A DNA stretch of 64,000 nucleotides from Terana coerulea (lineage: Eukaryota; Basidiomycota; Agaricomycetes; Polyporales; Phanerochaetaceae), in contig JAKOGH010000005.1 of NCBI GenBank assembly GCA_024811115.1, positions 992,001 to 1,056,000 of the forward strand, given 5' to 3'. The notes beneath the pieces are model-generated. The model was not told where the DNA came from. It searched no databases and was given only the letters and a program-made list of their open reading frames with translations. Shown one piece after another: positions 2,387 to 24,798 of the stretch (positions are counted from its first letter, which is position 1; each line of letters starts with the position of its first letter). Position numbers and translations under genes: made by a program.

Positions 2387-3606
2387 ATGGACGACCAATT
2401 CGAACGCATGATGGCACAAGCGCAAGCTGGTCAGCGGGGAGGTAGAGAGAGCAACGTTCCCGACAAGTATGTCTCGTTCTATGCGTGAGGGCGGAACGCA
2501 TACTAAAGTTCTCATTTAGCGGCGAAGTCATCCACATTTCCTCTCTTGCCCTGCTCAAGGTCAGCTCATACCCGGTATGAATCACGCAGTAGTAACGCTA
2601 ACAATACCCTCCGCAGATGTTAAAGCACGGACGGGCAGGTGTACCTATGGAAGTCATGGGTCTTATGCTGGGCGAGTTCGTAGACGAATACACCGTACAA
2701 GTCGTCGACGTCTTTGCTATGCCGCAATCTGGAACCACAGTCTCCGTCGAGTCTGTTGACCACGTCTTCCAAACACGGATGCTCGAGATGCTGAAACAGA
2801 CAGGACGGTGCGTCTCTATTTGACTTCCGTTATCTAGGCGGAAGTTCACGTTCTATCTATCTTGAACCCAGGCCAGAAGCCGTCGTAGGCTGGTACCACT
2901 CCCACCCAGGTTTTGGATGCTGGTTATCTAGTGTTGATATCAACACGCAACAAGTGAGTCCAGGCTTAGGTGAAACGCGCAAGATAGGACGCTTACCTGG
3001 CATGATGCCAGTCTTTCGAGTCGCTAGACCCCCGTTCAGTCGCAGTCGTCATTGATCCTATACAGTCCGTGAAGGGCAAGGTCGTTATCGACGCCTTCCG
3101 CCTCATCCAGCCGCAAACCGTCGTTGCCGGTGCAGAACCCCGGCAAACGACATCGAACATCGGCCTCATCAACAAACCCTCCATCCAGGCCCTTATCCAT
3201 GGCCTCAACAGGCACTACTATTCAATAGCCGTGAACTACCGCAAGACTGAGCTCGAGCAAAGTATGCTTATGAACCTGCACAAGCGAAACTGGACAGAGG
3301 GCTTGACGCTAAGAGACTTCAAGGGGCTGAAGGAGAGCAACGAGAAGTCTATCAAGGTGCGCACTTGTTTTTGGGAATCGAAAGCACACAGGCTGACCTT
3401 CGCGCCCTGCTGCGCAGAAAATGCTCACGCTCTCAGAGGCATACAACAAGTCCGTGCAGGAGGAGTCCACTCTCACGAGCGAGCAACTCAAGACCCGCCA
3501 TGTCGGAAAGCAAGATCCCAAGCGGCATCTGGAGGAGGCGGTCGAAGAGGCCATGGGCAACCAGGTGGTGCAAAACCTCGCTACCATGCTCTTGGCAGAG
3601 CTATAG
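2387..3606 (+). CDS. RPN11: 26S proteasome regulatory subunit Rpn11 (JAMM deubiquitinase)
   Basis: Six exons (2387-2466, 2520-2559, 2617-2807, 2872-2953, 3012-3356, 3418-3606) total 927 nt and encode 308 residues, the usual Rpn11 length. Rpn11 is the zinc metalloprotease of the proteasome lid that removes ubiquitin chains as substrates are translocated. The MPN/JAMM domain is complete. The catalytic Glu lies in [12 protein letters not shown], and the zinc-binding HxH...D is in the motif [14 protein letters not shown]. The conserved segment [19 protein letters not shown] and the C-terminal helical region ending MLLAELstop are also present. Every junction uses GT-AG and keeps frame, and no indel was found. 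A proteasomal lid role is certain by family. Confidence 0.97.
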
Positions 3607-4387
3607 ACGGCAGGCCGTGGTACTCAGCACGCTGGACAAATTTGTACAATTCACTTATGGCATCAGAACTTCACTCGTTTCACCCGCTGTTAAGCTTTGA
3701 AGCACTGCAATGAGGAGGAAGACTCTCATCCGAGTGCTTCTCGGCAGTCGGCAGAGGCTTGCAAAGCGACTTCGCGGGTCTTGTGACGGACAAACAAGGT
3801 CTAGAGTGCCTGTGACGGCGCTGACGACTGGACATATGTAATACCACGCTCTCAGGCTTCAGGGTCTGCAGGAACAACCGTCGGTGGATCATTGCGCAAC
3901 TTTCCCTAGGTCCTTACGATATCCCTCACTTGTGCGCGCACCCCTTGCCGTGATCTTCTGGTTCTGATACCTTCAGGGAGGACGCCACAGGTGATCAACC
4001 CTAGACCAGCAAGGTACGCCCAGGGAAAGGCAAAGTGTGTCAAGCCAAACGGCGTTAGCCAGGTAAGGCCACACTCTTCCCGAAGCTCGTAGAAAGTCTG
4101 AGATAAGACGAGTATGTAAAGGCAGTTTTTGCTGTGCGTTGGCCCGGAGTACCGGTCGCATTCAATTATGTGATGGTGAGGCTCGGCAAGTGAGAGAACG
4201 TGACAGCTTTTCCATCCTACTCAGATGAAATGCACGTTGAATGGCAGAGCCGCCATCGACAATCCGAAGGCTCCGAAAGATACGCAGGGTTTGGTTTCGC
4301 ACTGAAGCAGTAGAGATATATTCGGATAGAGAAAGACCTAAAGCGGCTGGGATTGTGAGTCAATGTTGCCACGTACTTCTCATTCTA
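3607..4387. other. Intergenic, no gene seen
   Basis: The 3' flanks of the convergent RPN11 and mitoribosomal S18 genes. Only short open frames without recognisable protein features are present on either strand. Confidence 0.6.
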
Positions 4388-5053
4388 CTATAGACTGTAA
4401 CGGCGGTCGGCGGGATCGCGCAGTGGCCGCTTCGACAGCAGAGGGATAATGCCCATCATCTTTGCTCTGCGAATAGCCTTGCCGATCTTGCGCTGGCTTC
4501 TCCAGGTCAACCGTGTGGCCGGGCGGTGCCGAATTTTGCCCATGGAGCTGACGTACTCTGACAAGAGCACCGAGTTTGTCGCTTCGTGAATGGGGTCAAT
4601 GTCCAGCTGGCGGAAAATGTCGTAACGCGCTGCCTCTTTCCGGGAAGGGCCGAGAGACCAGACCTTAGGTCTCGGTTTGTTTGACTCCAAGCGAGCCCCC
4701 ATGGTGAAGTCAGCAGGGCCGATGAACTGTGAAGGGAAGTTCAAAGAAGGTCAATGTGAATCGAAGAGTGGCATACGTGTTGACTTCGGTAATCCCGTAG
4801 AATTTTTTGTGGTCCAATGGGCGTTACTGGTGCTAACGAACGTTAAGTATAGATGCAAACTAAGACATAGATTTGACATACCCGCCGTCCGCTGCTGTCT
4901 GCTTTCTTCCGCGTCCCCGAGCGCATCAATTAGCTCATCGCTGGCACCTTTCTTTTCCGTGTTGCGCGACGGAACAGTGCATGAGAATGTCCGTGAACTC
5001 CCCGCTCCCAGCGTAGTAGGAATGCTCGGGCAAAGACGTGGAGCTTGGCGCAC
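4388..5053 (-). CDS. RSM18: Mitochondrial small-subunit ribosomal protein bS18m (Rsm18)
   Basis: Three exons (5053-4882, 4832-4777, 4726-4388; introns 49 and 50 nt) give 567 nt and 188 residues. The C-terminal half has the bS18 signature: a segment around DYRSQHFIGPADF, then LLSEYVSSMGKIRHR, TRLTWRSQRKIGKAIRRAK and the tail MMGIIPLLSKR. It should bind 16S-like rRNA in the mitoribosomal small subunit. The N-terminus (MRQAPRLCPSIPTTLGAG) is rich in Arg and Ser and has no acidic residue for about 30 positions, as expected for a mitochondrial presequence. The middle exon is only 56 nt. It was chosen because it alone joins both neighbours in frame with good splice sites. Confidence 0.87.
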
Positions 5054-6199
5054 CGCGGCGCGAAAAGAAGCTTGTCGTGTGAGCGAGCATGAGGGACTCA
5101 GTTGCGCGTTGTAGATGTGGAGAGGCCGCGGAGGACGTTGTCGGGCCCAATCAAATGTACTCCAAGTCTAAAGGATTGCAACGGACTCTTAGTGCGGGTG
5201 AATCGTGCACCTGACCGGTACGCCGGACGCTGAGAGCAGCCAGAGATAATGGTGTGAGTTCAGGGCTGTGACGATAGCTACGGCGATGCTCACCTCAAAC
5301 GTCCTGATGTCGGCGAGGGCAGAGCTACTGCGCTGACTGGGACCGGGCGAGCAACTCGATGTCGTGTTGAGAGTCCTGCGAGAGACGCCAAGCTGCCGAC
5401 GCAGCTGGAAACGCGGACCAGAAACGGCCAAGGCCTGGGCGAGGCGCTTGTCTGCGGCGATCAGCGAGAGGGAGTGAGGATCCGGACACGCGGCGGCAGG
5501 ACCCCGAGAGCAACGACCCTCTACGTAGTGGATCTTCGGCCCCAAATCCGACCGCGAGGCGTGGCCAGTCCGAGTCTCTCGTCTACAAACTACAACGACC
5601 CGTCCAGCAATGGCAACAAAGAATAGACAATGTGTTCCGTACGTGTACGCCGGGAAGACGGGAGATGTGAGGAGATTATGGACAGCGTCAGCAATGTCTG
5701 GGCTAAGTGCTTATCACGAGACGGGTCAGCGGTGCTGGTAACAGGGGTTGGTCGAATCTCGATGAGAAGGCAAGACCCCGAGCTGCGGTGCGGCAGCTTC
5801 TTGGTAAATTCCACACAAAGGGTCATCATTTATGGACCACAAGCTGTACAAAAATGATCACGTGGAATCCAATTGAGCCCAAGTAAGGAAGGTTTCAGAA
5901 AGCTTTGGTGCCCAAAGGGGATGTTTGGGACCACAATGGGCGGTGTACACTGGGAGAGATTCTCGGCCAGGACTCGCTCGAGGTCACTCTCCATCCTCCC
6001 GCCCTCGACTTCCACCTCCTCACCGCTACGCGCATTTTTCATACACACCCATCAATCACATCCCCCATGCTGTTCTGAGACTGCCACCTCACCATACTCC
6101 TCGGTCGTCTTCCCCCCGTCAACCAAGTCAACCGAACCCTGCACATCCTCGACGTAACCAGAGCCTTCGCAACATCCTGCAAGTGCTGCTGGGAGTCTC
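5054..6199. other. Intergenic; CT-rich leader upstream of RIM15
   Basis: No gene could be supported. A 118-codon open frame on the minus strand (5545-5189) has no recognisable domain. From about 5985 to 6199 the plus strand is strongly pyrimidine-rich, typical of a fungal promoter or 5' leader, and probably belongs to the kinase gene that follows. Confidence 0.5.
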
Positions 6200-9100
6200 A
6201 TGTCCGACTCGAGTTTACTGCGTCGCCAGCCACCTAGCCCGCTCGTGTTCTCGCCAGAGACTGTGCTCAATGCCATCCCACTGCAGTCTCAGCCATCAAC
6301 CAGCAGCTCCCATGCATCCGGCGCGAACACCGTTTCCATGCCTTTTGTGCGACGGCATGTCTACCGTCGCCTGAAGGCCGCCAAGCAAGATTGCGACAAG
6401 GAGCTTCAGCGTGTCACCAACTCTATCACCGCATTCTTCGAGGAGCGCTTGCGAGACAACGATCACGAGCAGGAGTTCGAGCGGGAGCAGCGCGAGAGTG
6501 CGAGAGACCGCGATCGCGACTCACGTTCGGGCGACGTCGAGCCACTACGAGAGCCGTTTATTCTTCAGCCACAAGCCCTTCGATCCGCTCTGCAGTTCGA
6601 TGAAGTCAGCTCGGATGGTGGATATGAAGCCGAAGCCGAAGTTAGCAGTACTAGAGGTCGTCAGTGTGCGTCTTTCAGCTCAGTCTATTCTCAATCGTCG
6701 TAGTGTCTGACCTGAACTTGACACTATCTCACCACGACAACAGCCTCCATCTCATCTGTCTATAGCCCTGCTTCCCGCAGCCCGGCATCTTTACGAAGGC
6801 AGCCTACACTTCCGCGCGAGAACAGGTCTTCGACGAATCTCCCTTCTACTGGTACAACAAGTCCCGCGAGTAGCAGTGCAACCCCGCCTCCCGAGCTGGC
6901 GGTGAGTCCTCGTAAACGGGACAACGCCAGCGCGTCGAGTGGGCAGTGGGCTGGTCAGAGCCTCGCCTCTCGCCGGTTATCGCGTACCATACACATCCCA
7001 ACTCGACCTCCTCGTTCAGGCGCCAGCTCCAGGTCAACCTCTCGCTCGCGTTCCCCGCTTCCGCGTTCTGCATTCCCAGATTCCTCCTTTAAAGACCGCC
7101 GCTCGTCGCGCATACTTGTGGACGAGCCTAATGACCCAATCATGAACACCCTCTACGAGATCATCAGCGTCGCGACGGACGTTATGGACATGTCTATAAG
7201 CCAGCTCACGGCTGATCCCAAGATATGTGAAAGGCTCGTTACGAGAGTGCAGAACATCGGCAGGGTCTGGGATGAACATCCGGATTGGCATGGGCGAAAT
7301 TGGTACGTCCAGGTGCTACTCGCGACCGCTAGTCTCAGTCGAGTGGTCGAGTGGTGGGAAGCCGAGAAGCAGTTCTGGAACTTCGACGACAATGATGATG
7401 AGCAGGAGGAGCCCCTACTCTTTGTGACGAAGCCGCAGGACGAAGGCGTCGCTGCTGTACCTTCCACGCCGTCTATGAAACATCCGATGTCGTACACCGG
7501 GAGCGTCCTTCGGGTCGGTGCTGACGAGGAGGTCAAGCTCCGGATGTCGCGCACCACCAGCGGGGGCCGGCGGGCTAGGGAACGCGAACAGCCTGGGTCG
7601 GATCTACTCATGACTCCTGCATCAAAGGAGAATAAGGATGCTGACCATCCCAGGAGCGTTTCCAAGTTTGATAACGCTGAGTCCGCCCGTGTCCTAGCGA
7701 CCGAGCGGCTTCGGTTACAGGCCGAGACTGCGCAGAACCAGAACATTGTCATCGAGCTCGACTTGGACGGTGACCATGTCATTTGGGTCAACTACGCCTG
7801 GCGTAATGTCATTGGGTAAGACTCAAGCCCCCACTCCTGTACATTGCCTGTCTCATTGTTTTTCTTGCAGCAGCGACCCGGAGGACATCCAGAGCACGCG
7901 GATATCCAAGCTCCTTGCTGCGTCTGATTGGCATGTATTCCGAGACGCCACACGGCGGTTAATGGAGGACGACTCACATACGATTGAGGTCCGCTTCAGG
8001 GTCAGGCTATACGACCAAGAGGCAGACCGGGATCCTTCCACACCCGCACTCTACCAGCAGATGGAGGGCAAAGGCATGTTAATGGTCGATCGGGAGGAGG
8101 GTACGCCTACGCATACCATGTGGGTGACCAAGCCCATCTCTTCCCCGGAATACCTGCAGGCACCTCCTCCCATTCTTCTCGAGACTGGTGATATTGGTGG
8201 CGCGCCGTCTACTCCGCCGCCCCCTACTCAGTCGGTGGGCTTCAGCGACCGTTTACCACACGAACCTGTCACGCCGTTCCCCTTCGCGAGACCGATCAGC
8301 ACTGCCCTCATCCTCTGCCGAATATGCGAGTGTAACATCCCGCAATGGTACTTCGAGAAGCACAACGAGACCTGCAGCGAGGTTCACCGTCTCGAGGCTG
8401 AAATCGGGGAATGCAACGAGAGCATCAGCGAGCTTCGTAATACCATCCGCGAACTGCAGGGTGCTATGGACCGATCTTCCCCTATGACGATTCCCGAATA
8501 CCGCGGTATGCCTATCTTCACTCCGTCGTCCAGCCCCGGTTCGAGTTCACCTCTGTCTCTCCTGCGAGCGCCGCTAAAGATGAAGCGCACGAGCGTCAAG
8601 AAGCTGCAGCGCCAGATCCTTGAGCAGCTCGAGGACGTCTTGCAGCTCGCCGCCGAGATCAAGATTCCCGGTGTCAGGGAGGAAGAGGCTCAAGAACCGA
8701 TTGAAAGACAAAGACTGCTCTCGCCTGGCTCTGAGGCGAAGGTGTCGCGTATTCGGCGGTGGAACAAGCCTACGATCGAAGACTCAGCGCTCACTCAGCT
8801 GGTTGACGACGCGGATCGCGTCATGCGCCAGAAGGTCGACAATGTCTCTCGCATGCAGAACACCATTCGGTACTCGGAGAAGATCAGGCAGGAGTGGGAG
8901 GAGAAGGTCGAGCAAAGACTGGCGTTGGTGGGCGATGGGCTCGGCTCCGAGTCTGAGTCTGAGTCTGACGAGGACGGCGAGGTCCCTCAGGAGGACGAGG
9001 ACGATGGGGAACGCCACCAGCTGACCTCTCTTCCTGAAGCTGAGGATGACCACTCAAGCACGAGGTCGGAATACGGCTTTACTATGGGGACCTCTCCGGA

Positions 9101-12100
9101 TCCCACTCCGCAAGCTACGACTTCACCCATCCCGTTCGCTGCCTCCATCTCGCGTTCCGAGAGTGTAGCGAGCAATGCTTCCTCCGTTCCCATGCCTGTA
9201 CCACAGTATGCCTGGCCGTCGATGTCGATGTCGATGAGTGCACAACAAACACGGTCGTCCACCCCATCCTCGATATCCTCACCGTTGGCATTGGCTCAGC
9301 CGATCGTTGCGTCTACTAGCTTGGATGACATTCCGCCTCGGTTGGATCTCAACGAGGGTCTTAGCCAACCCATCCCTGTACCTGCTTCGATGTTCTTCTC
9401 CAACCGTCCCCGTCGCTCGCCCCAGAATTTGGAACCCAAGCTATTCATCACTCCCCCGCTGTCGCCCATGGTCTCACCACACGACCCTCAAGCCACCGCC
9501 CGCAAATCGGGCACCCGACGCCATTCGAACGCCGTGCCACCTATCATCAGCCCGACCACCTCTGTTTCCAACATCCCCTTTCACCACGGATACCGTCCCT
9601 TGCCCACGGACCCCGTACGAGCCCGACCTCGATTAAGGACTTTGAGATCATCAAGCCTATTAGCAAGGGCGCCTTTGGTTCAGTCTTCCTCGCAAAGAAG
9701 AAGGCCACAGGCGACTACTTTGCTATCAAGGTCCTGAAGAAGGCGGACATGATTGCGAAGAACCAGATCACGAACGTCAAGGCCGAACGCATGATTCTCA
9801 TGAAGCAGGCGGAGTCTCCTTCGTCGCAAAACTATACTTTACTTTCCAGAGCAAGGACAACCTTTACCTTGTGATGGAATACCTTAATGGTGGCGATTGC
9901 GCCGCTCTAATCAAGTCTCTTGGGTCGCTGCCTGAAGAGTGGACTAGGAACTATGTCGCAGAAGTCGTTTTGGGTTTGGAATCTCTTCATCAACGGGGTA
10001 TTGTACATCGGTGAGTGTCTGGCTTCCTGGCGTTGTCGCCCGCTAAAGAGTCACTGTTCTTGTCTGCAGTGATCTCAAGCCTGATAATCTCCTAATTGAC
10101 CAGCATGGGCACCTCAAGCTGACGGACTTTGGATTGAGTCGGATTGGTCTCTTGGGCCGACAGACTCGTGACGGCCAGCTCTCCGCGGAGCGCGGTCCCC
10201 GCACGCGTCCTCGGCACAACTCCCGTCCCCCGTCCATCGATTCGTACATGTCCTCCCCACTGTTAGCAGCAGATTTGCATGGTTCGTACTTCAGCCAGCG
10301 CACGCAATCGAATCCGCGCCCAGGATCTTCGCCTTATCTACCCCTTACAGATGATGTTAGCGAGTCCAGCGGCTCCGAGTCGGTCTACAACCTCTTCCCG
10401 AGGCGGAACGGCAACCGACAGGCGAACGACAGCCCGCTGCAATCGTTCGCGACGGAGCTCACGACGGACCTTCGCTCGCATCCTACCTTGACGCCTGGCA
10501 GTACGCCCCCCGGGGAGCAGAAGGTCGTTGGAACGCCAGATTACCTTGCGCCGGAGACAATTCTGGGTCTGCGAGGAGACGACGCGGCTGTGGACTGGGT
10601 AAGTCGTTTATTATATTCGAGAAATTCTGAGACTGAGTGGCATTCCTACAGTGGGCGTTGGGCGTCATTACGTACGAATTCCTCTACGGCATCCCTCCTT
10701 TCCATGACGAGACGCCAGAGAAAGTGTTCGAAAACATCTTGTCCGGTCACGTCGAGTGGCATGAGGAGTACATCGAGATCTCCGACGAGGCCAGGGATTT
10801 CATTCAGCGACTTTTGACATTGGATCCCACTCAACGTCTGGGGGTGAATGGCGCAGAAGAGGTCAAGGCCCATCCATTCTTCTGCGGCATCGACTGGAAC
10901 GCCGTCACAACGACTGAGGCTGCGTTCATCCCACAAGTCACGGACCCAGAGTCGACGGATTATTTCGACCCTCGCGGTGCAGTGTTGCAACTGTTCAACG
11001 AGGAAGAAGCTATGGCCGCAGCGGCGGCAAACGCGCTTACCGACAGCCCCCTCACTGGATCGGATGCACCATTGCCAGCGACTCAAAGCGTCCCTGTTCC
11101 CATCGGCCGCGAGAGCATCTCGACACCCAGCGACGACGACTTTGGCTCCTTCAGCTTCAAGAACCTTCCCGTACTGAAGCAGGCGAACGACGACGTCATC
11201 CGGAAATTGCGCACTGATCAGCTTGTGCCTTTGACCCATGCGCTCTCGGAGCCTTCCACACACACACGGCGGAAGAGCATCTCCAACCGTGTGAAGAAGC
11301 CGTCCAGCGTGATCACCACAATAGAGAACCCGCCGAAGTCTGGGCCGTCCACCACGAGCCCGCCGTCCCCGGCCACGTCGACCTCGTCCATTGCGTCATC
11401 GCCCTCGCGGGGACCGCCTACCCCGGGCAGCGCAAGCGGCCACGCTCGCAAGCCCTCTGATCTGAGCACTGTCGAGCGCTTCAAGCTCAGTCACCTCGAG
11501 GGCGACATCCACCGCCGGAACTCGATGCCGAGCCGCCTGCGCACCGCGTCCGTGTCGACGAGCGGGGACGGCTCGCAGTCGGATACGTGGTCTGCGCCCG
11601 CGTCACAGGACACCGGCCGCTGGGACATCCACTCGCCGCCGTCTTCTATCGCATCCATGGACCTGCGACCGATGATTGACCTGAAGCGGGCACCGGACCC
11701 CCAGGACAGGGCGGTAACGTGCCTTGTCGCGGAGGACAATCCAATTACGGCAAAGATCATCGAGACGCTGCTCATTCGGTTGGGCTGTCGCTGTTACGTT
11801 GTTGCGGATGGTTCGGAGGCGATCAGTGTTGCAATGGGCGATATCAGTACGTCTCTGCCTTCCTTTGCTAAATGAGTTGCTAGGCTGACCGCACCCCTTC
11901 GCAGAATTCGACTGCATATTAATGGACCTTCATATGCCGATCCGTGAGTATACGAATAAGCTCTCCGCTGTGTCCGGCATCTGACTAACACTGTTGCTTA
12001 GTCGACGGTGAGGGTGCCGCACGGTATATCAAAACTACCAACAACAGGAACGCGACCACGCCAATCATTGCCGTCAGTGCATACAGCGGCTCGGAGGCGG

Positions 12101-12922: not shown

Positions 12923-15474
12923 ATGGCAGGCGCACCCTGGCCAGACAGTCGATACCCACCATTTCCGCCCAGAAACTCATCTTACGCCCCTGCGCCCCGC
13001 CGCACGACCCGCGACGACAGCACTATGGCACCGTTCCGCCTGCGGGGTTCTACAACCCTCCATATTCCCTGGACAGTCTATGCCAGGCCCCAGTGCAGGA
13101 TACCCGCCCTACGCTGCGGCGAGCCCGCCTACGCCGATGCAGCAGCCGATTCCCCACATGCTGAAGCCTGGCGGGGCCCCGCGCGCCCCGACGCGCTTTG
13201 CGCCCGTGCGCGCAAACTCGGGCGACCTCGCAGGCGACCTGTTCTTCCAGGACCCGCCGAACTTCCCGATGCCGCAGATACCAGTCCCGCAGACACCGCG
13301 GGCGCACGCCTCGCACGCCCCCCACGCCCTCCACGCCCCGCAAATACGGCACACGGTCTCCGCGCCGCCCCCGCCGCTGCCGCGGAAGCCCGACTTCCAG
13401 CAGCCGCCGCTGCCGCCCAAGCCGGCGTTCGCGTCCGCGGCGTCGTCACCTGGGGTCTACCCAACAGCGGTGACCTCACCCAGCGCCTTCCCTGAGAAGC
13501 GGCCGAGCATTTCGCAAGAGCACGGCGGTCCGTCTGTCAATGTTAGTCCCAGTATGCCTGCGCCGGCTGTCAGACCTCGACCTGCGGAGGAAGACGACCC
13601 TGCGCTGAGAGAGGCGTTGGAGCAGTCTAAAGAGAGATGCAGAGGCTGCTGCGAAGCGCGAAGAGGAAGAACTGGCGAGAGCTCTGGCCGCATCTTTGAC
13701 TACCTCTCCGCGGCAAGATTTGTACGGTCAGTCGACACCAAACACTGCTTCTAGCTCACGGGCTAGACCATTTAACGATGGGTACTTTTCGGGGGCATCG
13801 CCATCGTCTGCCTCTGGATCCTCATCTGCGCCGGCGGTTCCTCTTAGCACGACCAATCCGTATGTGCAGTCACCGGAAGAAATTGGCACTGCTCCCAGTC
13901 AGGTCACCTCTGGAGAGGCGGTTCAGTTCATGTCCAGCCCGCCAACCATGGCCAAGCAGCTGATGGATGACGAGGCATTTGCACGAAGTCTTATGGAAGA
14001 GGAGCAAAGACTTGCTCAGCAGACGCAGGAGGGGCGAGCGAGGGTAGAGGTCAACACGAGAGACGCTGCCCTGGCCCGAAGAGGATCTGAACAACTGGAA
14101 GCTCGCTCTCCTCTTTCTCCACAACCTCCACAGTACAACGAGCTTGCGTTAGCTGTCCCTTTGCCATCTACTCGTCCTCCAACGGCTCCGGGATCACCTG
14201 CTGTGCCTCCTGTGCCTTCACCCATGCCTGCGCCTGTACCTGTTCCAAGCCAGCACCGGCCGCCATCACCAGAGACACCGAGATCAGCCTCGGACGGCGC
14301 GCTCCTCGGACGCAGCACGTCAGCCAACGTTGTCCCCGCACAGCCCTCCCCACACCTGCGCGAGTCACGCTCGCAGTCGTTTGCAGGATACGCAGCCGGG
14401 ACCTCGCAGGTCAGACCACCACTGCCCAACTCACCGCCGACAAGTGCGACAAGCTCGTCGGTTGCCTCTCCGCAACTCACGCCTGTGCCGGAGAGGGCGG
14501 AGAGCACCGCATCGCATGCGAGCACTGGCAGCGGCAGCCCTCACTTGAGACCGCCGTCGGAGTCTCCTGCCGGACGGCAGACGAGTCAGTATGTCGACAG
14601 TGAGCTGCTAAGGGGCGTTAGTGAGTGTTCTTCGTCTTCTACATTGAAATGCACCTACTCATCGGGCTGTACAGCCATTGGATTCAACCCGCCGGTAATT
14701 ACAGCGGTACAGGAACCTATGCAGGGGCCGATACCGAACGTCATTGCGTTACCGTACGGGCGCGCGCCGCCACTGCATATCAAAGCGCCAAATTGGCGGG
14801 ATATGCTGAAATTGATGGCGCGGCTCAGTGGGACAAGGCTTGAGCCGACCATCGAGACGATGGCGGTCGTGAAGACGACGATGAACCTCCGAGTGGTCAT
14901 CAACTTCGTCAAGGTAAATATTTCTGTAGTATGCCACACTTTCGCTAACTGCCCTTGTCTCCAGGTACATCAGTCCTCTCAAGATTGGCACGTTGTACTG
15001 TACATGACGATCGACCACCCCGTCCCGAACGACCACCGCTACAAGCTGCGGAACGCCAACGACCCCGCGCTGCTCCCGTACTCGTACACGCTCTCGCCCA
15101 CACCCGCCTACCTGCGCGAGGTCGCCGACGGACCCATGTCCAAGTGGTACGCCATCCCATCCACCGCCGCCAACCCGTTCCCGACCCTGCCGCTCGCCTT
15201 CCCGGACCTCGCGACGTACCTCATGACGGCGCTCGAGGACTCGCGGCGCGCGGCGCACGACCGCACGAGCGGGCTGCACCGGCTCGCGAAGTCCGTGGAC
15301 ACACTGTACCCGGGCCGCGGCGGCAGCGGCGACGCGGAGGACGAGGCGGAGCGGACGCGCTTCTCGGAGCGCGTGAAGGGCCTGTTTGGCTTCCGGAGCC
15401 GCGGGAACCAGTTCGCGAACGACGACCGCTCGGACCTGGTCACGCCGTTTTATGCGGACGACTTTGGGCGGTAG
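12923..15474 (+). CDS. Unknown protein with tandem UIM-like motifs and a C-terminal family domain
   Basis: Exons 12923-14620, 14675-14913 and 14965-15474 give about 815 residues. The first third is low in complexity and rich in Pro and Tyr. Around residues 220-270 come ubiquitin-interacting-motif-like helices: DDPALREALEQS, then EEEELARALAASL in the corrected frame, and DDEAFARSLMEEEQ further on. A Ser/Pro-rich linker follows. The last ~260 residues form a domain shared with two neighbours (16183 and 23551): RAPPLHIKAPNWRDMLKLMA, WHVVLYMTIDHPVP, LPLAFPDLATYL, and the tail motif FANDDRSDLVTPF. Two one-base deletions (CCCC 12995-12998, C 13078) and one insertion (AAA 13629-13631) break the frame. 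The UIM motifs suggest ubiquitin binding; no enzymatic function can be named. Confidence 0.75.
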
Positions 15475-16182: not shown

Positions 16183-17375
16183 ATGATGGCCGTAGCCAAC
16201 ACGTTGGCGGAACAGCTGTCCTTACAGGATAAGTACCTGGGAACCGTATGTGCTGTGCTGATAATGCATTCTACACCACACCCCCATCCGCTTACCCATA
16301 GGGCACACAGACGATGTCGGGTCATCGACGGCGATCGCGAGGAGCCTCTGAGTCGACGTGGATGAGCGCGAGCCCACAACATGAGGAGTATACTTTCCAC
16401 CCAGGCAGCTACGGCTCAGATACAAGTAGCAACTGGCATCCATTGCACGTAGGGACAACCCCGCCACGCGAGTCGCTTTTGCTTCACCCGCTGCACACCC
16501 GGTCAAGCTCCGGCTCGCAGGCGAGCAGCCCACACAGTCCAAGCAGGAGCCACGACGTATACACTGTGTCCGGACCATCGTCGTCGCACACGCAAGATGC
16601 GATAGCATTGTCGAACGCCCCCGTGGACGAGCAGCTCCTGCGGGGCATCGGTTTTGGGTTCGGCCCGCCCGAGCTCGCCGCAGACCTCAGTCCCTACCGC
16701 GGGCCCATCCCACACGAGATCGGGCTCGACTACGGCATGACGCGCCCCTTCCACCTCCACGCGCCAAACTGGCACGACATGCTCAGGCTGCTCGCACAGC
16801 TCGGCAACACGCGGCTCGCGCCCACGCAGCGGGTGCGCGAGGTGATCCACGAGCCGCTGCGGCTGCGCGTCGTCGTGAGCTTCGTGAAGCTGGAGAAACA
16901 CAGCGCGGCGGAGACGCATGTCGTGCTCTACCTCACGATCGACTTCCCTGTGCCCGCCGACCACGCGTACCACTCGCGTGCCGCGGCGGCGGACCCGACG
17001 ATGCTGCTCCCGTACTCATATTCCCTCGCGCCGCCGCCGCCCCTGCTGCAGCACGGCGCAGACAGCCCCATCTCGCAGTGGTTCGTCGTCCCGGCGACGC
17101 CGCGCACGCCGTGGCCGGTGCTGCCCGTATCGTTCCCAGACCTCGCGGGCTACTTGACGGCTGCGCTGGAGGAGTCGCGGCGCGCCGTGCAGAAGAAGAG
17201 CAACGGGATGCATCGTCTGGCGAAGGCGGTGGAGTCGATATACGGCGGTGCGCGGGTGGAGGGTCCACGGGAGAAGACGAGCCTGACGGAGAAGGTGAAG
17301 AGGCTGGTTACGGTTGACGAGACGTCCGAGGATGGATTTCGTTTTGATGCACCATCACCAGCGCCAAGCGCTTGA
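16183..17375 (+). CDS. Paralogue of the UIM-gene C-terminal domain, 3' end replaced by transposable-element sequence
   Basis: Exon 1 (16183-16245) and exon 2 (16302-17375), split by a 56-nt GT-AG intron, read about 378 residues. The domain shared with the 12923 gene is clear: RPFHLHAPNWHDMLRLLAQL, THVVLYLTIDFPVP, LPYSYSLAPPPPLL, LPVSFPDLAGYLTAALEESR, GMHRLAKAVESIYGG. No UIM is present. At 17308 the family sequence stops, and the final ~22 codons (TVDETSEDGFRFDAPSPAPSA) come from the left terminal repeat of an inserted element. The natural end lies 4.2 kb away at 21513-21604. If transcribed and spliced as read, a nearly full-length protein with a foreign tail would be made. Function unknown. 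Confidence 0.75.
17301..17308 (+). repeat. Target-site duplication, left copy
   Basis: AGGCTGGT here recurs at 21512-21519 on the other side of the element. Because the outermost element base is ambiguous, the duplication is 7 or 8 bp. It is single-copy in the uninterrupted paralogue near 24450. Confidence 0.75.
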
Positions 17376-17708
17376 TGGGCGCTCCGACGGCTTGGTCCGC
17401 CCGACGGAGGCTTTGCTCTGTCGTTGCAGTGAGATCTATGTACCTACCCATAGCTACATAGCACCGCTAGTGGAATTGAGAAAGAATGAGGAGGAAGGAG
17501 CTCAGGGCCGCTCGAAAGGTCGAAATCCGAAGTTTGCTGGCGGGCGCTAAACTACGGAGGTAGCCGGGCGGTGATTGATAAACGAATGCGGTAACTTAGC
17601 GATAACAAGTCCGAGATGATCTAAGTTTGGGTTATCTAGCACGTGAGCTCCCGCCCCTCCGCCACGGCGCCACGCCACATCGAGCTTGCGCTCGTTGTTC
17701 TCAACCAT
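17309..17708 (+). repeat. Left 400-bp terminal inverted repeat
   Basis: Starts TACGGTTGACGAGACG and is the reverse complement of 21113-21512. I compared the two copies throughout and saw no mismatch. The outer part carries a short open frame that is fused to the host gene on the left side. Confidence 0.93.
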
Positions 17709-20700
17709 GCCGAAGATGTTTCAAGCCACGCTGCAGGTGACAGCGTAGGTTAAATAAAAATCCTTACCCACCTTTTTTAAGGGTTTAGATTCCGTTCGGC
17801 GAGTGTCCGAGGCTGTCCGATGCCCCTGTAAGGCCCTGTGGACGATGTGAGGATGCGATCAAAGCTAGCGCTTGCACCCTCGGAGAACGCCGAGTTCGAT
17901 TCCGAGGGGCCGCACCATCGAGAAAACCCCCAAAATTTCCCACAACCTTGTACAGCGTCTGCAATACATGCAAGCGTCTCGTGAGTGGTAGAATCATCTT
18001 GTAATCGGTGAAATTGGCAGAAGGCGTCCAATCTCTGTAGTCGCCCGGGATTGTTTGTATGCCACTTGTAATACTCTTGCAATCAGCATGCAAGTGAGTT
18101 AGGAGCTGGTTCCAAGTTGACAGACCTTTCCACCGCTTGTGGCCCGAGCAATTCTTGCCAGCTTGTGGATTATTCTCAGCTCTGCGCGCTACACATATCA
18201 TATCATTCTGAATTTCTTATATTGCTTTACACCTTTTTCTCTTGTTGTATTCTCATGCAATAACACTGATTCATTATTTAACTGATCCTTTATGTGTAAA
18301 TACATCTCGGGCGTTGCACGCCCGTAAAAATACCCTTGGCATAAGCTAGTAGCTACCATTTCGCACGCCTGCCGAGACCCTGAGTGGGGTTGTAAGCTGA
18401 GACAGAAAGGACAAGGCGTCTGAGCTCATTTCATGAAATGCCAGGATGCCCTGACTGTACTCACATCATCGACTGTCATCCTTGAAAGCTCTCCCTGTCC
18501 TCTCCTTATGCTCTAGTTCTAACTAGCATTCATCTGTCAGTAGCCAGACAGAGTATGAGACACAAACATGTACTTGTCTTGGTCATCTGTGTGGTGGCGT
18601 GAGGACGGGAGCAGGATCTAAGGTGTGGGCAGCATATCAGTACAGGTATTTGAACTTGGCGCACAGTCAGAACTCACGAGTGGGTGTGCAGAATCGCAGA
18701 GTTGTGCATGCCTTATATGCACATGCAGCTAGCTGTTGAGTCAGCACAACCGCAACAGCGCTGACTGCGCACTGACCTGGGATCTGAAACATTGTTCCCG
18801 AGTCGTAATACCCCACCCTGAAGCGTTACCCTCACGTGACAGTTGCACCCTGCACGCCGCAGGGACACCGGCAATAATAAACTCTAGTCATACGCCGAGC
18901 TCCACGTTCTATGCTGTCCAGTTGAGATTCAAATTGTGGCGCCTCAACGGTGGTGTAAGCCTTCATAAAGGATTCCCATATCACGGTGCTGGCACACGCA
19001 GAGGCGGTCGGGGTTGGGGTATATGGCTATGCCAAAGATAAAGGGCGTGTTGTCAGACAATATTGCTGAGAAATTGTGTACTCACTGTTAGAACCATAGG
19101 CACTTTTGTGCAGTGCCTGCCATTAGGGACCTAGGGTATGCAGAAAGACTGTAACTAACTAAACGTAAGCTGACTCGGACAACATTCAGATTGGGCTGAG
19201 GTACTCGCCAGAGTTTCTATCAGCCGCCGGCGCCGGACGTGAGAAATGATAAAGATGGGTGCTGAAAGAGTTCCAGCCTTTCATGAGAAAGACGCAAGCA
19301 GGTTGCAAGTCACCATAACTCTTTCAGCAATGTTGCAAGTGGTAGAATCGGTCCAAGGAGTAGAATCCGTGCAAGCGTCTTGCGGGCTGATCGGAAGCCT
19401 CTCCGAATACGGACAATGAGCGTCAAACCTCGAAATTGGCGTAATCGGTAGGAGCCGCCAGGATTCCTTTCGATGACTCACCTCCGACCATGTCCTTCCT
19501 CTCCCTTCCCCCTCACACTCGGCGCAACACCTCCGGGACCTCGTAGCATACCCTGCGCACCACCCGCTTCCCTTACGCATTGCATACGATGCTCATCCAT
19601 CCGTCACGATCGCCTACAAGACCGACACCGTCGTCCGACCGTGGATGCATCGCAGCATCCACCAGACGGCGGCAGCGTCTCCCTCGAGCCCTCGAAGGCC
19701 ACGACAAGCGTTAATAGGATGTGCGGGGTCGTGAGGGGCCCTCGAGTTATCGCAGGTACGTCCCCACCGCGTGATGTGCTCCCGACGTCGCCCGTGCCAT
19801 CCACAGCTGTGCTTTGCACGGCTCGTAGATGGGTCTATCTCGTACTGACCGAGTATTCCTTTCATTAGACTTACTACTTTCTTTTCGCTGCTGACACCAC
19901 GCCGTAAGCCGGCTCCGCGGCTGCACCGTCAGTCGGCCGCTCCCCAGCACAACAGCCACACGGGCACGTGAAGACAGCCTGGCCGGCGTGCCGCGTCGCA
20001 CGCCACTTGACGATGTCGCTGCCTGCTCGCTGCAGCTCAGGCTACGTGTCGCGCATGCGAAGGCCCCAGGAGTGCGCGGCTGCGCTCAAGCGCGGGACAA
20101 CCTCCGTCACTCATGCAGCCGTCCACGTCTCCTGGCCAGGCAGCACGCAGCCGTCGCACGTCTACTGCGCGTCAATGCGTTTACGATGCTGCTATGCCGT
20201 TGCCGCGTCGCCGTGTGCCGCCGCCGCTGCCCCGCCGCCCACCTGGACCCCGGGACTTTTGTCCCCAAGACGGCGCGCTGCTCACAGGCCCGAATGCTGC
20301 CTTAGCCATGCAACTCCTGGGCCCCGTGAGGCGAATCCGCAGCCCGACAGGCGTCGCGTGCTAGGCACAAGGTTTGTATTACAACTATTAGGCATACCCT
20401 AGCCCCTAGGCTACCATAGTAGGGGCTGCATGTATCTATATATCACATTAGTAACTCCATGAAGCAATCCAGAAGCGCGGTAGAGGGTAAATAAAGGTGT
20501 GAAGGCTGCCCAGAAGGCTGCTGGGATAGTACCTACTACCTGCTCAGGGAAAAGGTGCGATGCCACTAAGAAGAATGCTGACGTGTATGGGGATCAGTGC
20601 ATTGCTCTAGTCTCCATAGCTGACTACTATATAAACAGTCAGATGCCAGTCAATCCAAAACCTTGTATATAGTGACAGCTACGCACGTCATATTTGTTCC

Positions 20701-21112
20701 CCCACTTCTCAGTGATCTGCTCTACGACGATGCACACTACAAGGAATACCATCTCCAATGTTGCGCACTGTGTGGCGTAGGGCCGCCGCTTGATGACCAC
20801 GCTGTCATGTCTGCATTAGATAGCCATGCAGCACAGAGCACACTGCATCATGCTCACTTGTACGCTTTGAGCACGGACGCCATTGATGCAATCCCTGTGT
20901 GTTGATACAGCTAAAGCTTGGAGTATGAAAGAAAGGAGGGTGTGCACTATCTGTGGCGCAGGGCTTCGCATCATCCACACGCGTCATGACAATTAGCAGA
21001 AAGGTGCCCAGCAGCCGCGCCGGGCTTTCAAGCAGCGGCGAGCGACACCTGGCAGCTGTCAGGTCTCCCGTGGATAGAGACGGTGAAGGAGACGCCGCAG
21101 AAGGCAAGCTGT
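17709..21112. other. Interior of the inverted-repeat element
   Basis: 3.4 kb without a supported gene. Open frames are short and unrecognised (for example 18201-17785 minus, 19968-20402 plus). Two stretches, about 17950-18060 and 19330-19470, share short strings such as GCAAGCGTCT and GTGGTAGAATC and may be remnants of an internal repeat. A tRNA B-box-like string lies at about 17891-17902. A GC-rich block at 19970-20300 differs from its AT-richer surroundings. Confidence 0.5.
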
Positions 21113-21512
21113 ATGGTTGAGAACAACGAGCGCAAGCTCGATGTGGCGTGGCGCCGTGGCGGAGGGGCGGGAGCTCACGTGCTAGATAACCCAAACTTAG
21201 ATCATCTCGGACTTGTTATCGCTAAGTTACCGCATTCGTTTATCAATCACCGCCCGGCTACCTCCGTAGTTTAGCGCCCGCCAGCAAACTTCGGATTTCG
21301 ACCTTTCGAGCGGCCCTGAGCTCCTTCCTCCTCATTCTTTCTCAATTCCACTAGCGGTGCTATGTAGCTATGGGTAGGTACATAGATCTCACTGCAACGA
21401 CAGAGCAAAGCCTCCGTCGGGCGGACCAAGCCGTCGGAGCGCCCATCAAGCGCTTGGCGCTGGTGATGGTGCATCAAAACGAAATCCATCCTCGGACGTC
21501 TCGTCAACCGTA
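21113..21512 (-). repeat. Right 400-bp terminal inverted repeat
   Basis: Reverse complement of 17309-17708, identical as far as can be seen. Its 78-codon open frame on the minus strand is the mirror of the one on the left. Confidence 0.93.
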
Positions 21513-21519
21513 GGCTGGT
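21512..21519 (+). repeat. Target-site duplication, right copy
   Basis: AGGCTGGT, the partner of 17301-17308. The first base may instead belong to the inverted repeat. Confidence 0.7.
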
Positions 21520-21604
21520 GCAGAGAGGGCCGAGACGCGGAAGTCAGACCGAGTATGCGAACGACGAGCGTGCGGGGCTGGTTACCCCATATCGACTTGG
21601 ATAG
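21513..21604 (+). pseudogene. Displaced C-terminal coding segment of the 16183 gene
   Basis: Reading on in the host frame from the duplicated site gives RLVQRGPRRGSQTEYANDER followed by AGLVTPYRLG and a stop. The tail matches the end of the 12923 paralogue (FANDDRSDLVTPF) and of the 23551 pseudocopy. It is therefore the original end of the 16183 gene, cut off by the element. It has no start of its own. Confidence 0.8.
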
Positions 21605-23550: not shown

Positions 23551-24500
23551 GCAAATCGTTTACCCAGGCAGCTGCGGCTCGAATGCAAGTAGCGACTGGC
23601 ATCCGCACTTAGGTACAAGCCCGCCGCGCGAGTCGTTCTTTGTTCATCTGCTACACACCCAGTCAAGCTCCGGCTCGCACGCAAGTAGCCCACACGGTCC
23701 AAGCAATAGCCACGACGTATATAAAATGACTGGACTGTCGACGCATACGCGAGATGCGATAGCATTGTCGAATGCCTTCGTGGACGAGCACCTCCTGCGC
23801 GGCGTCGACTTCGGGCTCGGCCCGCCCGAGCTGACCGCGGACCTCCGCCTCCTACCGCGGGCCCATCCCGCACGAAATCGGGCTCGATTACGGCATGGCG
23901 CGCCCCTTCCACCTCCGCGCGCCGAACTAGCACGACATGCTCAGGCTGCTCGCGCACCTCGGCAACACGCGGCTCGCACCCGCGCAGCGGGTGCGAGAGG
24001 TGATCCACGAGCGGCTCCGGCTGCGCGTCGTCGTGAGCTTCGTGAAGCTGCAGAAGCACAGCGCGGCGGAGACGCACGTCGTGCTCTACCTCACGATCCA
24101 CTGTCCCTTGCCCGCCGACCACACGTGTCACACGCGCGCTGCAGAGGCCGACGCGACGATGCTGCTTCCGCACGCGTACTCCCTCGCACCGCCGCCGCCC
24201 CTGTTGCAGCACGGCGCGGACAGCCCCGCCTCGCAGCAGTTCGTCGTCCCTACGCCGCCGTGGCCGGTGCTGCCCGTGTCGTTCCCGGCCCTGGTGGGCT
24301 GCCTGACGGCGGTGCTCGAGGCGTCGCGGCGCGGCTCGCTGAAGAAGGGCGGCGGGATGCCCCGCCTGGCGAAGGCGGTGGAGTCGATATATGGCGGTGT
24401 GCGGGTGGAGGGTCCGCAGGAAAGGACGAGTCTCACGGAGAAGGTGAAGAAGCTGGTGCAGAGGCGGGAGTCAGACCGAGTACTATGCGAACGATGAGCA
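23551..24500 (+). pseudogene. Truncated, nonsense-bearing copy of the 16183 gene
   Basis: Sequence from about 23551 matches the 16183 gene, but the first exon and start are missing and the join abuts the tail of the F-box gene. It has an extra base near 23846-23852 (relative to DLSPYRG), a Trp-to-stop change (AAC TAG where the paralogue has AAC TGG) at about 23928-23930, and another frame change near 24460. A 186-codon frame from 23937 (MLRLLAHLGNTRLAP) remains open over most of the domain. The insertion site used by the element in the paralogue is uninterrupted here (AAGCTGGTGCAGAGG), which makes it the empty-site reference. Confidence 0.85.
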
Positions 24501-24798
24501 TGCGGGGTTGGTGACCGCATGTCGGCTTGGATAGTACTGTCGTATAAACCCGACTCATCCTGTGAGCGACACTTGTACATGTGTACAGGCGGGCTTTATG
24601 GTACACTTAGCTTTGTAGGAATAGGACTCTTTTCCACTGTTGAAAGATTCTGTAAGTCGGGATGCCTTGCCCCGTGACTTTGTTGAGTCCTATTACAATT
24701 CTCTCGACGTCTTATCATAGAAATATCTTCCATTACATCTGTATGAAAAATCGAAGTTCTCTCTTCTTCAACCACGCTGCTCATTCAGATATTGGGTC

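What the first reader, a model, noticed from the sequence alone, without database searches (positions are those of the whole stretch)
17301..21519. Recent insertion of a long-inverted-repeat element inside a gene, with a built-in empty-site control
Two 400-bp arms, identical by eye, in inverted orientation surround 3.4 kb. They are bordered by a 7-8 bp direct repeat (AGGCTGGT). The host protein frame stops at the left border and resumes, in frame, at the right border. The pseudocopy near 24450 shows the same site without insertion. No transposase is recognisable inside, and repeat length plus duplication length fit no common superfamily neatly, so it may be a non-autonomous member of an undescribed family.
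Basis: partly seen in the sequence, partly recalled or inferred. Interest (0 to 1): 0.78.

Follow-up and report, generated by a model that had tools for sequence, protein, structure and literature searches.

The report
Fungal jumping element with long arms
A 4.2-kb mobile DNA element with two identical 400-base arms has recently jumped into a gene of a wood-rotting fungus; it belongs to a small family that copies a 7-base landing site and shows no enzyme of its own in the parts tested, so it probably borrows one that was not found.

Summary
Arms 17309-17708 and 21113-21512 are 100% complementary (400 bp). The element (17309-21512, 4,204 bp, TACGG..CCGTA) is flanked by GGCTGGT, an exact 7-bp duplication; the eighth base is the element's own A. 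One arm has 29 matches in this 48.4-Mb genome. Of 13 end pairs read, 12 carry exact 7-bp duplications, all different. Contig C718, collinear with the locus, has the site empty (670 of 671 bases). Nine interior ORFs tested showed no transposase. The 8.2-kb copy holds helicase and DUF6589 genes, but these lie in a separate nested element with its own 10-bp duplication. The ends fit the fungal IS3EU signature TAYGG..CCRTA, yet IS3EU usually duplicates 6 bp, as an integrase-type family in this genome does at 7 of 10 loci. Verdict: a recent, probably haplotype-specific insertion of a non-autonomous TIR transposon, probably moved in trans. IS3EU is the best lead, but the duplication test fails, so it is not filed there. 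A nested 1,560-bp Plavaka-like repeat lies inside. The two arms of each element evolve in concert.

The parts
17309..21512 (.). whole element, 4,204 bp, TACGG..CCGTA
17309..17708 (+). left terminal inverted repeat, 400 bp; its first 40 alignment columns are identical in the representatives of three subfamilies
21113..21512 (-). right terminal inverted repeat, 400 bp, identical to the left
17302..17308 (+). target site duplication, left copy GGCTGGT
21513..21519 (+). target site duplication, right copy GGCTGGT
17916..19475 (.). nested, unrelated repeat (CATCGAG..TTTCGATG, 1,560 bp, 2-bp duplication AC at 17914-17915 / 19476-19477), Plavaka-like ends
17709..17915 (.). element interior, left piece
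19476..21112 (.). element interior, right piece; two ORFs tested, no Pfam match
16314..17308 (+). interrupted host gene up to the insertion; the frame runs into the arm and stops at 17375
21520..21604 (+). displaced 3' end of the host frame (27 codons and the stop, after a V codon split at the junction, as read in the empty contig)
23562..24647 (+). diverged paralogue of the host gene (approximate limits), same site empty (after 24457)

Best explanation
A recently inserted, non-autonomous cut-and-paste DNA transposon with ~400-bp terminal inverted repeats. Shown: it is one of 12 dispersed two-ended copies (plus fragments) in three subfamilies; each of the 12 sits in its own exact 7-bp target duplication; the site is empty in a collinear contig; no transposase was recognised in nine interior ORFs from the three subfamilies. 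Inferred: a DDE transposase encoded elsewhere (lost, unassembled or not recognised) binds the conserved outer ~40 bp and pastes the element at a 7-bp staggered cut; the arms are kept alike by arm-to-arm gene conversion. For the transposase, the IS3EU lineage is the best lead (about 0.45), a Mutator-type enzyme the next (about 0.15), a hAT with 7-bp duplication about 0.1; the rest is an enzyme not considered here.
For: 29 arm matches, a lower bound by the tool's own note. Exact 7-bp duplications at 12 of 13 end pairs, all 12 different. A 20-bp end search with up to 3 mismatches gave 29 places, 25 of them exact, against 5 for the reversed control. Outer 40 alignment columns 100% between subfamily representatives; deeper blocks of 20 range from 30 to 100%. 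Empty site in C718: 670 of 671 bases, one GGCTGGT, in a contig collinear with window 21.5-33 kb. Nine interior ORFs without a Pfam match over a cut-off. Arm differences between subfamily representatives shared by both arms: 43, 55 and 69 sites, with 0 sites where arms disagree. IS3EU lead: ends TAYGG..CCRTA and TA..TA.
Against: No copy with a transposase was found, so movement in trans is inferred; only nine ORFs were tested against Pfam. IS3EU is reported with 6-bp duplications, 'usually', and a PF24764 integrase-type family with TAYGG..CCRTA ends in this genome shows 6 bp at 7 of 10 loci and 7 bp at none. One of 13 end pairs (C524) has no duplication. The assembly is in 896 contigs, so an autonomous copy may be missing.
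Confidence: 0.9

Rival explanations
1. The family is moved by a Mutator-like (MULE) transposase; long TIRs are common there and the 7-bp duplication is an unusually short variant.
For: TIR length of ~400 bp fits MULEs (recalled); MULE transposase traces exist in this genome (2 matches, one over the cut-off).
Against: MULE duplications are mostly 8-11 bp (recalled); here 12 of 13 end pairs show exactly 7. No MULE match in the nine interior ORFs tested.
Confidence: 0.15
2. The family is a hAT lineage with 7-bp duplications (hAT7), as described from rust fungi.
For: hAT7 makes 7-bp duplications (passage of PMC12730594).
Against: hAT ends usually read YARNG (recalled); TACGG does not. In the passage hAT7 comes from Puccinia and Melampsora, not from wood-rotting fungi. 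No hAT match in the nine interior ORFs tested; hAT transposases elsewhere in the genome were not searched for.
Confidence: 0.1
3. The 8.2-kb copy C497 is the autonomous partner and the family is a helicase/DUF6589 (AcademH-like) transposon.
For: C497 carries a DEAD helicase and DUF6589 reading frames between the arms.
Against: The coding block (about L018:1386-7397) is an insertion of its own: its two ends occur together, without the genes between them at full length, at five other loci; it has its own ends TAGGTTCGG..GAGACTA and an exact 10-bp duplication at 4 of 6 loci (read); and it interrupts the left arm of a copy otherwise like the ~2.15-kb ones.
Confidence: 0.03
4. The inverted structure is an assembly artefact or an ordinary segmental inversion.
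For: Perfect 400-bp arms can attract mis-assembly; no reads were available.
Against: Twelve dispersed copies with the same outer ends and 12 different duplications; the empty contig carries one copy of the site.
Confidence: 0.01

Closest known systems
IS3EU / GingerRoot superfamily (PMC12730594, PMC10045372; passages read)
   Same: Ends TA..TA, here TACGG..CCGTA fitting TAYGG..CCRTA; TIR longer than 30 bp; integrase-type elements (PF24764) with TATGG ends exist in this genome.
   Different: 7-bp duplication instead of 6; arms of ~400 bp; no transposase recognised.
Galileo / Foldback-like P-superfamily elements of Drosophila (PMC2775673; passages read)
   Same: 7-bp duplications, long TIRs, subfamilies that share an almost identical outer 40 bp, arms alike within a copy but diverged between copies.
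   Different: Animal family; Galileo sites have the consensus GTAGTAC, the 12 sites here do not; no P transposase seen.
Kyakuja (KDZ) of mushrooms (PMC12730594; passage read)
   Same: 7-bp duplications in Agaricomycotina; KDZ transposase matches occur in this genome.
   Different: The Kyakuja families described end CA..TG and have no TIR.
hAT7 of rust fungi (PMC12730594; passage read)
   Same: 7-bp duplications.
   Different: Described from Puccinia and Melampsora; ends not compared here; no hAT match in the ORFs tested.
Non-autonomous TIR element at the Agaricus bisporus A mating-type locus (PMC10051438; passages read)
   Same: Mushroom, no intact transposase, TIR element present in one homokaryon and empty in the other; some relatives share only the outer 21 bp.
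   Different: 9-bp duplication, 93-bp TIR.

Membership tests
IS3EU | Ends TA..TA (in rust fungi TAYGG..CCRTA) | tested here: met
   TACGG..CCGTA at both ends of 12 two-ended copies; signature from passages of PMC12730594 and PMC10045372
IS3EU | TIR longer than 30 bp | tested here: met
   306-400 bp aligned in 12 copies
IS3EU | 6-bp target duplication (said to be usual) | tested here: not met
   7 bp at 12 of 13 end pairs, none with 6; the PF24764 family in the same genome has 6 bp at 7 of 10
IS3EU | IS3-like integrase-type transposase | tested here: inconclusive
   no transposase recognised among nine interior ORFs; a non-autonomous copy need not carry one
Kyakuja | 7-bp target duplication | tested here: met
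Kyakuja | CA..TG ends and no TIR | tested here: not met
   TACGG..CCGTA, arms of 306-400 bp; definition from the passage
Galileo (P superfamily) | 7-bp duplication with consensus GTAGTAC | tested here: not met
   length met; the 12 sites show no such consensus; definition
Dada | 6-7 bp duplication, inserted in small RNA genes (U6 and U1 families described as lacking TIRs) | tested here: not met
   long TIRs; the window copy lies in a protein-coding frame; definition from passages. Sites of the other 11 copies were not tested for RNA genes
Mutator-like (MULE) | 8-11 bp duplication (recalled) and MULE transposase | tested here: inconclusive
   7 bp found; definition recalled, no transposase to test
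hAT (hAT7) | 7-bp duplication and hAT transposase | tested here: inconclusive
   length met; ends and transposase could not be compared

The most novel reading that the evidence does not exclude
The family is the non-autonomous part of an undescribed transposon lineage of wood-rotting fungi that has IS3EU-type TA..TA ends but a 7-bp staggered cut, and whose ~400-bp arms are maintained by continual arm-to-arm conversion, so that only the outer ~40 bp are under transposase selection.
Probability: 0.35. Interest if true: 0.5.

Novelty: new member of a known kind. Interest (0 to 1): 0.36.

Why it matters
It gives a clean case (empty site in a collinear contig, 12 distinct duplications, three subfamilies whose interiors differ but whose outer ends do not) for asking how long TIRs are kept identical, and whether a lineage with IS3EU-type ends can change its staggered cut from 6 to 7 bp. 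It also warns against naming a family by the genes inside one long copy: here these belong to a second, nested transposon. As a side result, DUF6589, a Pfam family without a function, looks like a DDE transposase.

Tried and rejected
C497 as autonomous partner: rejected, because the helicase/DUF6589 block is nested. Autonomous partner by its ends: the 20-mer search with up to 3 mismatches found no further two-ended element; C793:452904 is a lone end (28 of 30 bases over the outer 30) with no partner in the 9.4 kb read beside it, C510:81233 (3 mismatches) looks like chance. KDZ locus C437 (8.5 kb read, one of six contigs with matches): no inverted repeat longer than 32 bp. Other integrase-type elements: C121 has flanks GCGGTCT / GCGGTCA (6 of 7), a single case for 7 bp; against it, the left flank of the C883 relative (..GCGGGGAA) and the right flank at C115 (GGGGAAG..) share 6 bases on different contigs, which proves nothing; no second end was found in the 2.2 kb read at each of C270, C115 and C883:25380-27600. 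So whether such elements can make 7-bp duplications stays open. Folding of the outer 92 bases as single-stranded DNA: z -1.55, 15 of 200 shuffles as good, no more than chance. Gene capture: a 362-bp interior piece (window 20677-21038) is 76-77% alike to C598 and C52, but four ORFs of C598 tested gave no Pfam family. The original AcademH paper is not held; its duplication length is taken from a passage in PMC10045372. Papers holding both IS3EU and '7 bp': one, PMC12730594, where the 7-bp passages shown concern hAT7 and Kyakuja. Searches gave no listing that described this family (titles and abstract starts only; 0 papers, 8 of 9 listed).
Full report
What is there. The window lies in a 48.4-Mb, 896-contig genome. 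The host protein at 13696-15474 has its best named relative in Phanerochaete carnosa (54% identity) and further ones in other mushroom-forming fungi (28 hits listed). The arms 17309-17708 and 21113-21512 are 400 nt, 100% complementary, and the only inverted pair of at least 40 bp that the search found in the window. The element is 17309-21512, 4,204 bp, TACGGTTGACGAG...CTCGTCAACCGTA.

A family. One arm finds 29 matches in the genome, a lower bound by the tool's note. Twelve two-ended elements account for 24 of them (C5 = the window copy, C717, C96, C71, C754, C698, C117, C207, C497, C272, C335, C534); the others are one arm at C510, three at C524 and one at C525. Thirteen end pairs were read: 12 have exact 7-bp duplications, all different. 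The thirteenth (C524:41477/43960) has none; its left end pairs instead with a damaged right end that lacks about 12 bases near its tip and is followed by the same 7 bases, CGCAGTA. C525 repeats that C524 end and may be its other haplotype (inference). The host base next to the element varies from copy to copy, so 7 is not a misplaced 6.

Subfamilies. Against the window arm, C510 is 96% identical, nine copies (eight of 2.0-2.5 kb and C497 of 8.2 kb with a nested insert) 84-87%, and C335/C534/C524 70-77%. In the comparisons printed, interiors are alike within the nine (about 94-99%) and within the last group (about 88-93%), but outside the arms little is shared between subfamilies. The outer 40 alignment columns are identical between representatives of the three subfamilies, while deeper blocks of 20 range from 30 to 100%; single arms of C510 and C524 differ at one base each within the outer 20. 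That is what one would expect if a transposase reads the outer ends.

Arms in concert. Within each of 12 elements the two arms are 97.4-100% identical. Over the first 300 alignment columns, the subfamily representatives (L009, L011, L020) differ at 43 (C/A), 55 (B/A) and 69 (C/B) sites at which the arms of each element agree, and at 0 sites where arms disagree. Among the 36 pairs of the nine-copy subfamily the count is 50 shared against 181 where arms disagree; many of the latter lie in L016, L018 and L019, so not every change has been copied across. Arm-to-arm gene conversion is the simplest reading (inference). A like pattern is described for Galileo, with TIRs alike within copies and ~7% divergent between copies (PMC2775673, passages).

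Empty site. Contig C718 carries the flanks joined with one GGCTGGT: 670 of 671 bases. It is collinear with the window from the target site to 33 kb: long pieces at 99.5% (2.6 kb), 98.5% (3.6 kb) and 96% (4.1 kb), one 305-bp piece at 88%, with gaps of about 0.2 and 0.4 kb. So it is most likely the other haplotype; a recent duplication is not excluded. C718 leaves the window sequence 30 bp upstream of the insertion point, with 347 bases of other DNA up to the contig end. This may be a second insertion in the same exon or an assembly end. The paralogue at 23.5-24.6 kb is also empty, at 83% identity.

Effect on the host gene. The frame from 16314 runs through the left border and stops at 17375 inside the arm: EKVKRL-VTVDETSEDGFRFDAPSPAPSA. 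The empty contig reads EKVKRL-VQRGPRRGSQTEYANDERAGLVTPYRLG, like the tail of the paralogue at 13696-15474. Neither the interrupted protein nor that paralogue has a Pfam match.

What is inside. Of the 3,404 bp between the arms, 17916-19475 is a nested repeat with matches on 29 other contigs. Its ends are CATCGAG..TTTCGATG, with a 2-bp duplication at the window copy and at all five other loci read (6 of 6, by eye). This is close to PlavakaB (CATCA..TGATG, 2 or 3 bp; PMC12730594 passage). Nine interior ORFs, chosen among the longest of the three subfamilies, gave no Pfam match over a cut-off; the only two rows had E 0.13 and 0.17. C497 has a DEAD helicase and DUF6589, but this block has its own ends, TAGGTTCGG..GAGACTA, occurs in shorter copies at five other loci, and shows exact 10-bp duplications at 4 of 6, read by eye. 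AcademH is said to duplicate 9 or 10 bp (PMC10045372 passage).

Which superfamily. IS3EU elements of rust fungi end TAYGG..CCRTA, with 6-bp duplications and TIRs over 30 bp (PMC12730594 passage); complete IS3EU families always end TA..TA, usually with 6 bp (PMC10045372 passage). The ends here fit, and the lone end at C793 reads TATGG. As a control I looked for integrase-type transposases (PF24764) in the genome: 11 matches. The C304 element runs 2911-11685 with like ends TATGGCGGCC.. (86 of 86 bases compared). That PF24764 is the IS3EU transposase is my inference from these ends. Its end 20-mer (up to 3 mismatches) occurs 44 times against 0 for the control. Ten loci were read: 6 bp exact at 7, 5 bp at one (C533), none at two (C304 itself and C486a), 7 bp at none. 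So that family behaves as published, and the long-arm family differs by one base in its cut. A second integrase-type element (C121) has 6 of 7 matching bases, one case only, and its relatives gave no clear pair. Because a defining feature was tested and not met, the family is not filed as IS3EU.

Side result. The DUF6589 fold, predicted for a public relative from 34 aligned sequences, has solved DDE transposases and integrases in its best 14 rows. The rmsd values are high, and only Hermes stands clearly above the Z level at which chance arrangements occur, so this is good but not final evidence that DUF6589 is a transposase.

Verdict. A real, recent, probably haplotype-specific insertion of a non-autonomous TIR transposon from a small family with 7-bp duplications. 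The kind is well known. What is unusual is the mix of IS3EU-type ends, a 7-bp cut and ~400-bp arms evolving in concert, with no enzyme found.

Noticed in passing
L018:1386-7397 (G000:C497), also L028-L032: A separate 6-kb transposon nested in a family copy: DEAD helicase and DUF6589 frames on opposite strands, ends TAGGTTCGG..GAGACTA, exact 10-bp duplications at 4 of 6 loci; AcademH-like.
   Followed up: partly
[not shown]
   Followed up: partly
window 17916-19475: Nested 1,560-bp repeat, CATCGAG..TTTCGATG, 2-bp duplications at 6 of 6 loci read, matches on 29 other contigs; Plavaka-like, no coding capacity looked for.
   Followed up: partly
G000:C304:2911-11685 (L047, L048): An 8.8-kb integrase-type (PF24764) element with TATGGCGG ends, and short relatives with 6-bp duplications at 7 of 10 loci read, C304 itself without one.
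   Followed up: partly
L041 (G000:C718), last 347 bases: The probably allelic contig leaves the window sequence 30 bp upstream of the insertion point, possibly a different insertion in the same exon.
   Followed up: no
L047:809-1168; also in L020, L022, L023/L042, L030, L036: A ~360-bp repeat shared by several loci and absent from the C408 copy of the C304 element; looks like a MITE.
   Followed up: no
window 13696-15474, 16314-17375, about 23562-24647: Three related copies of a fungal gene family; the first two have no Pfam match, the second is interrupted by the element; best named relative P. carnosa at 54%.
   Followed up: partly
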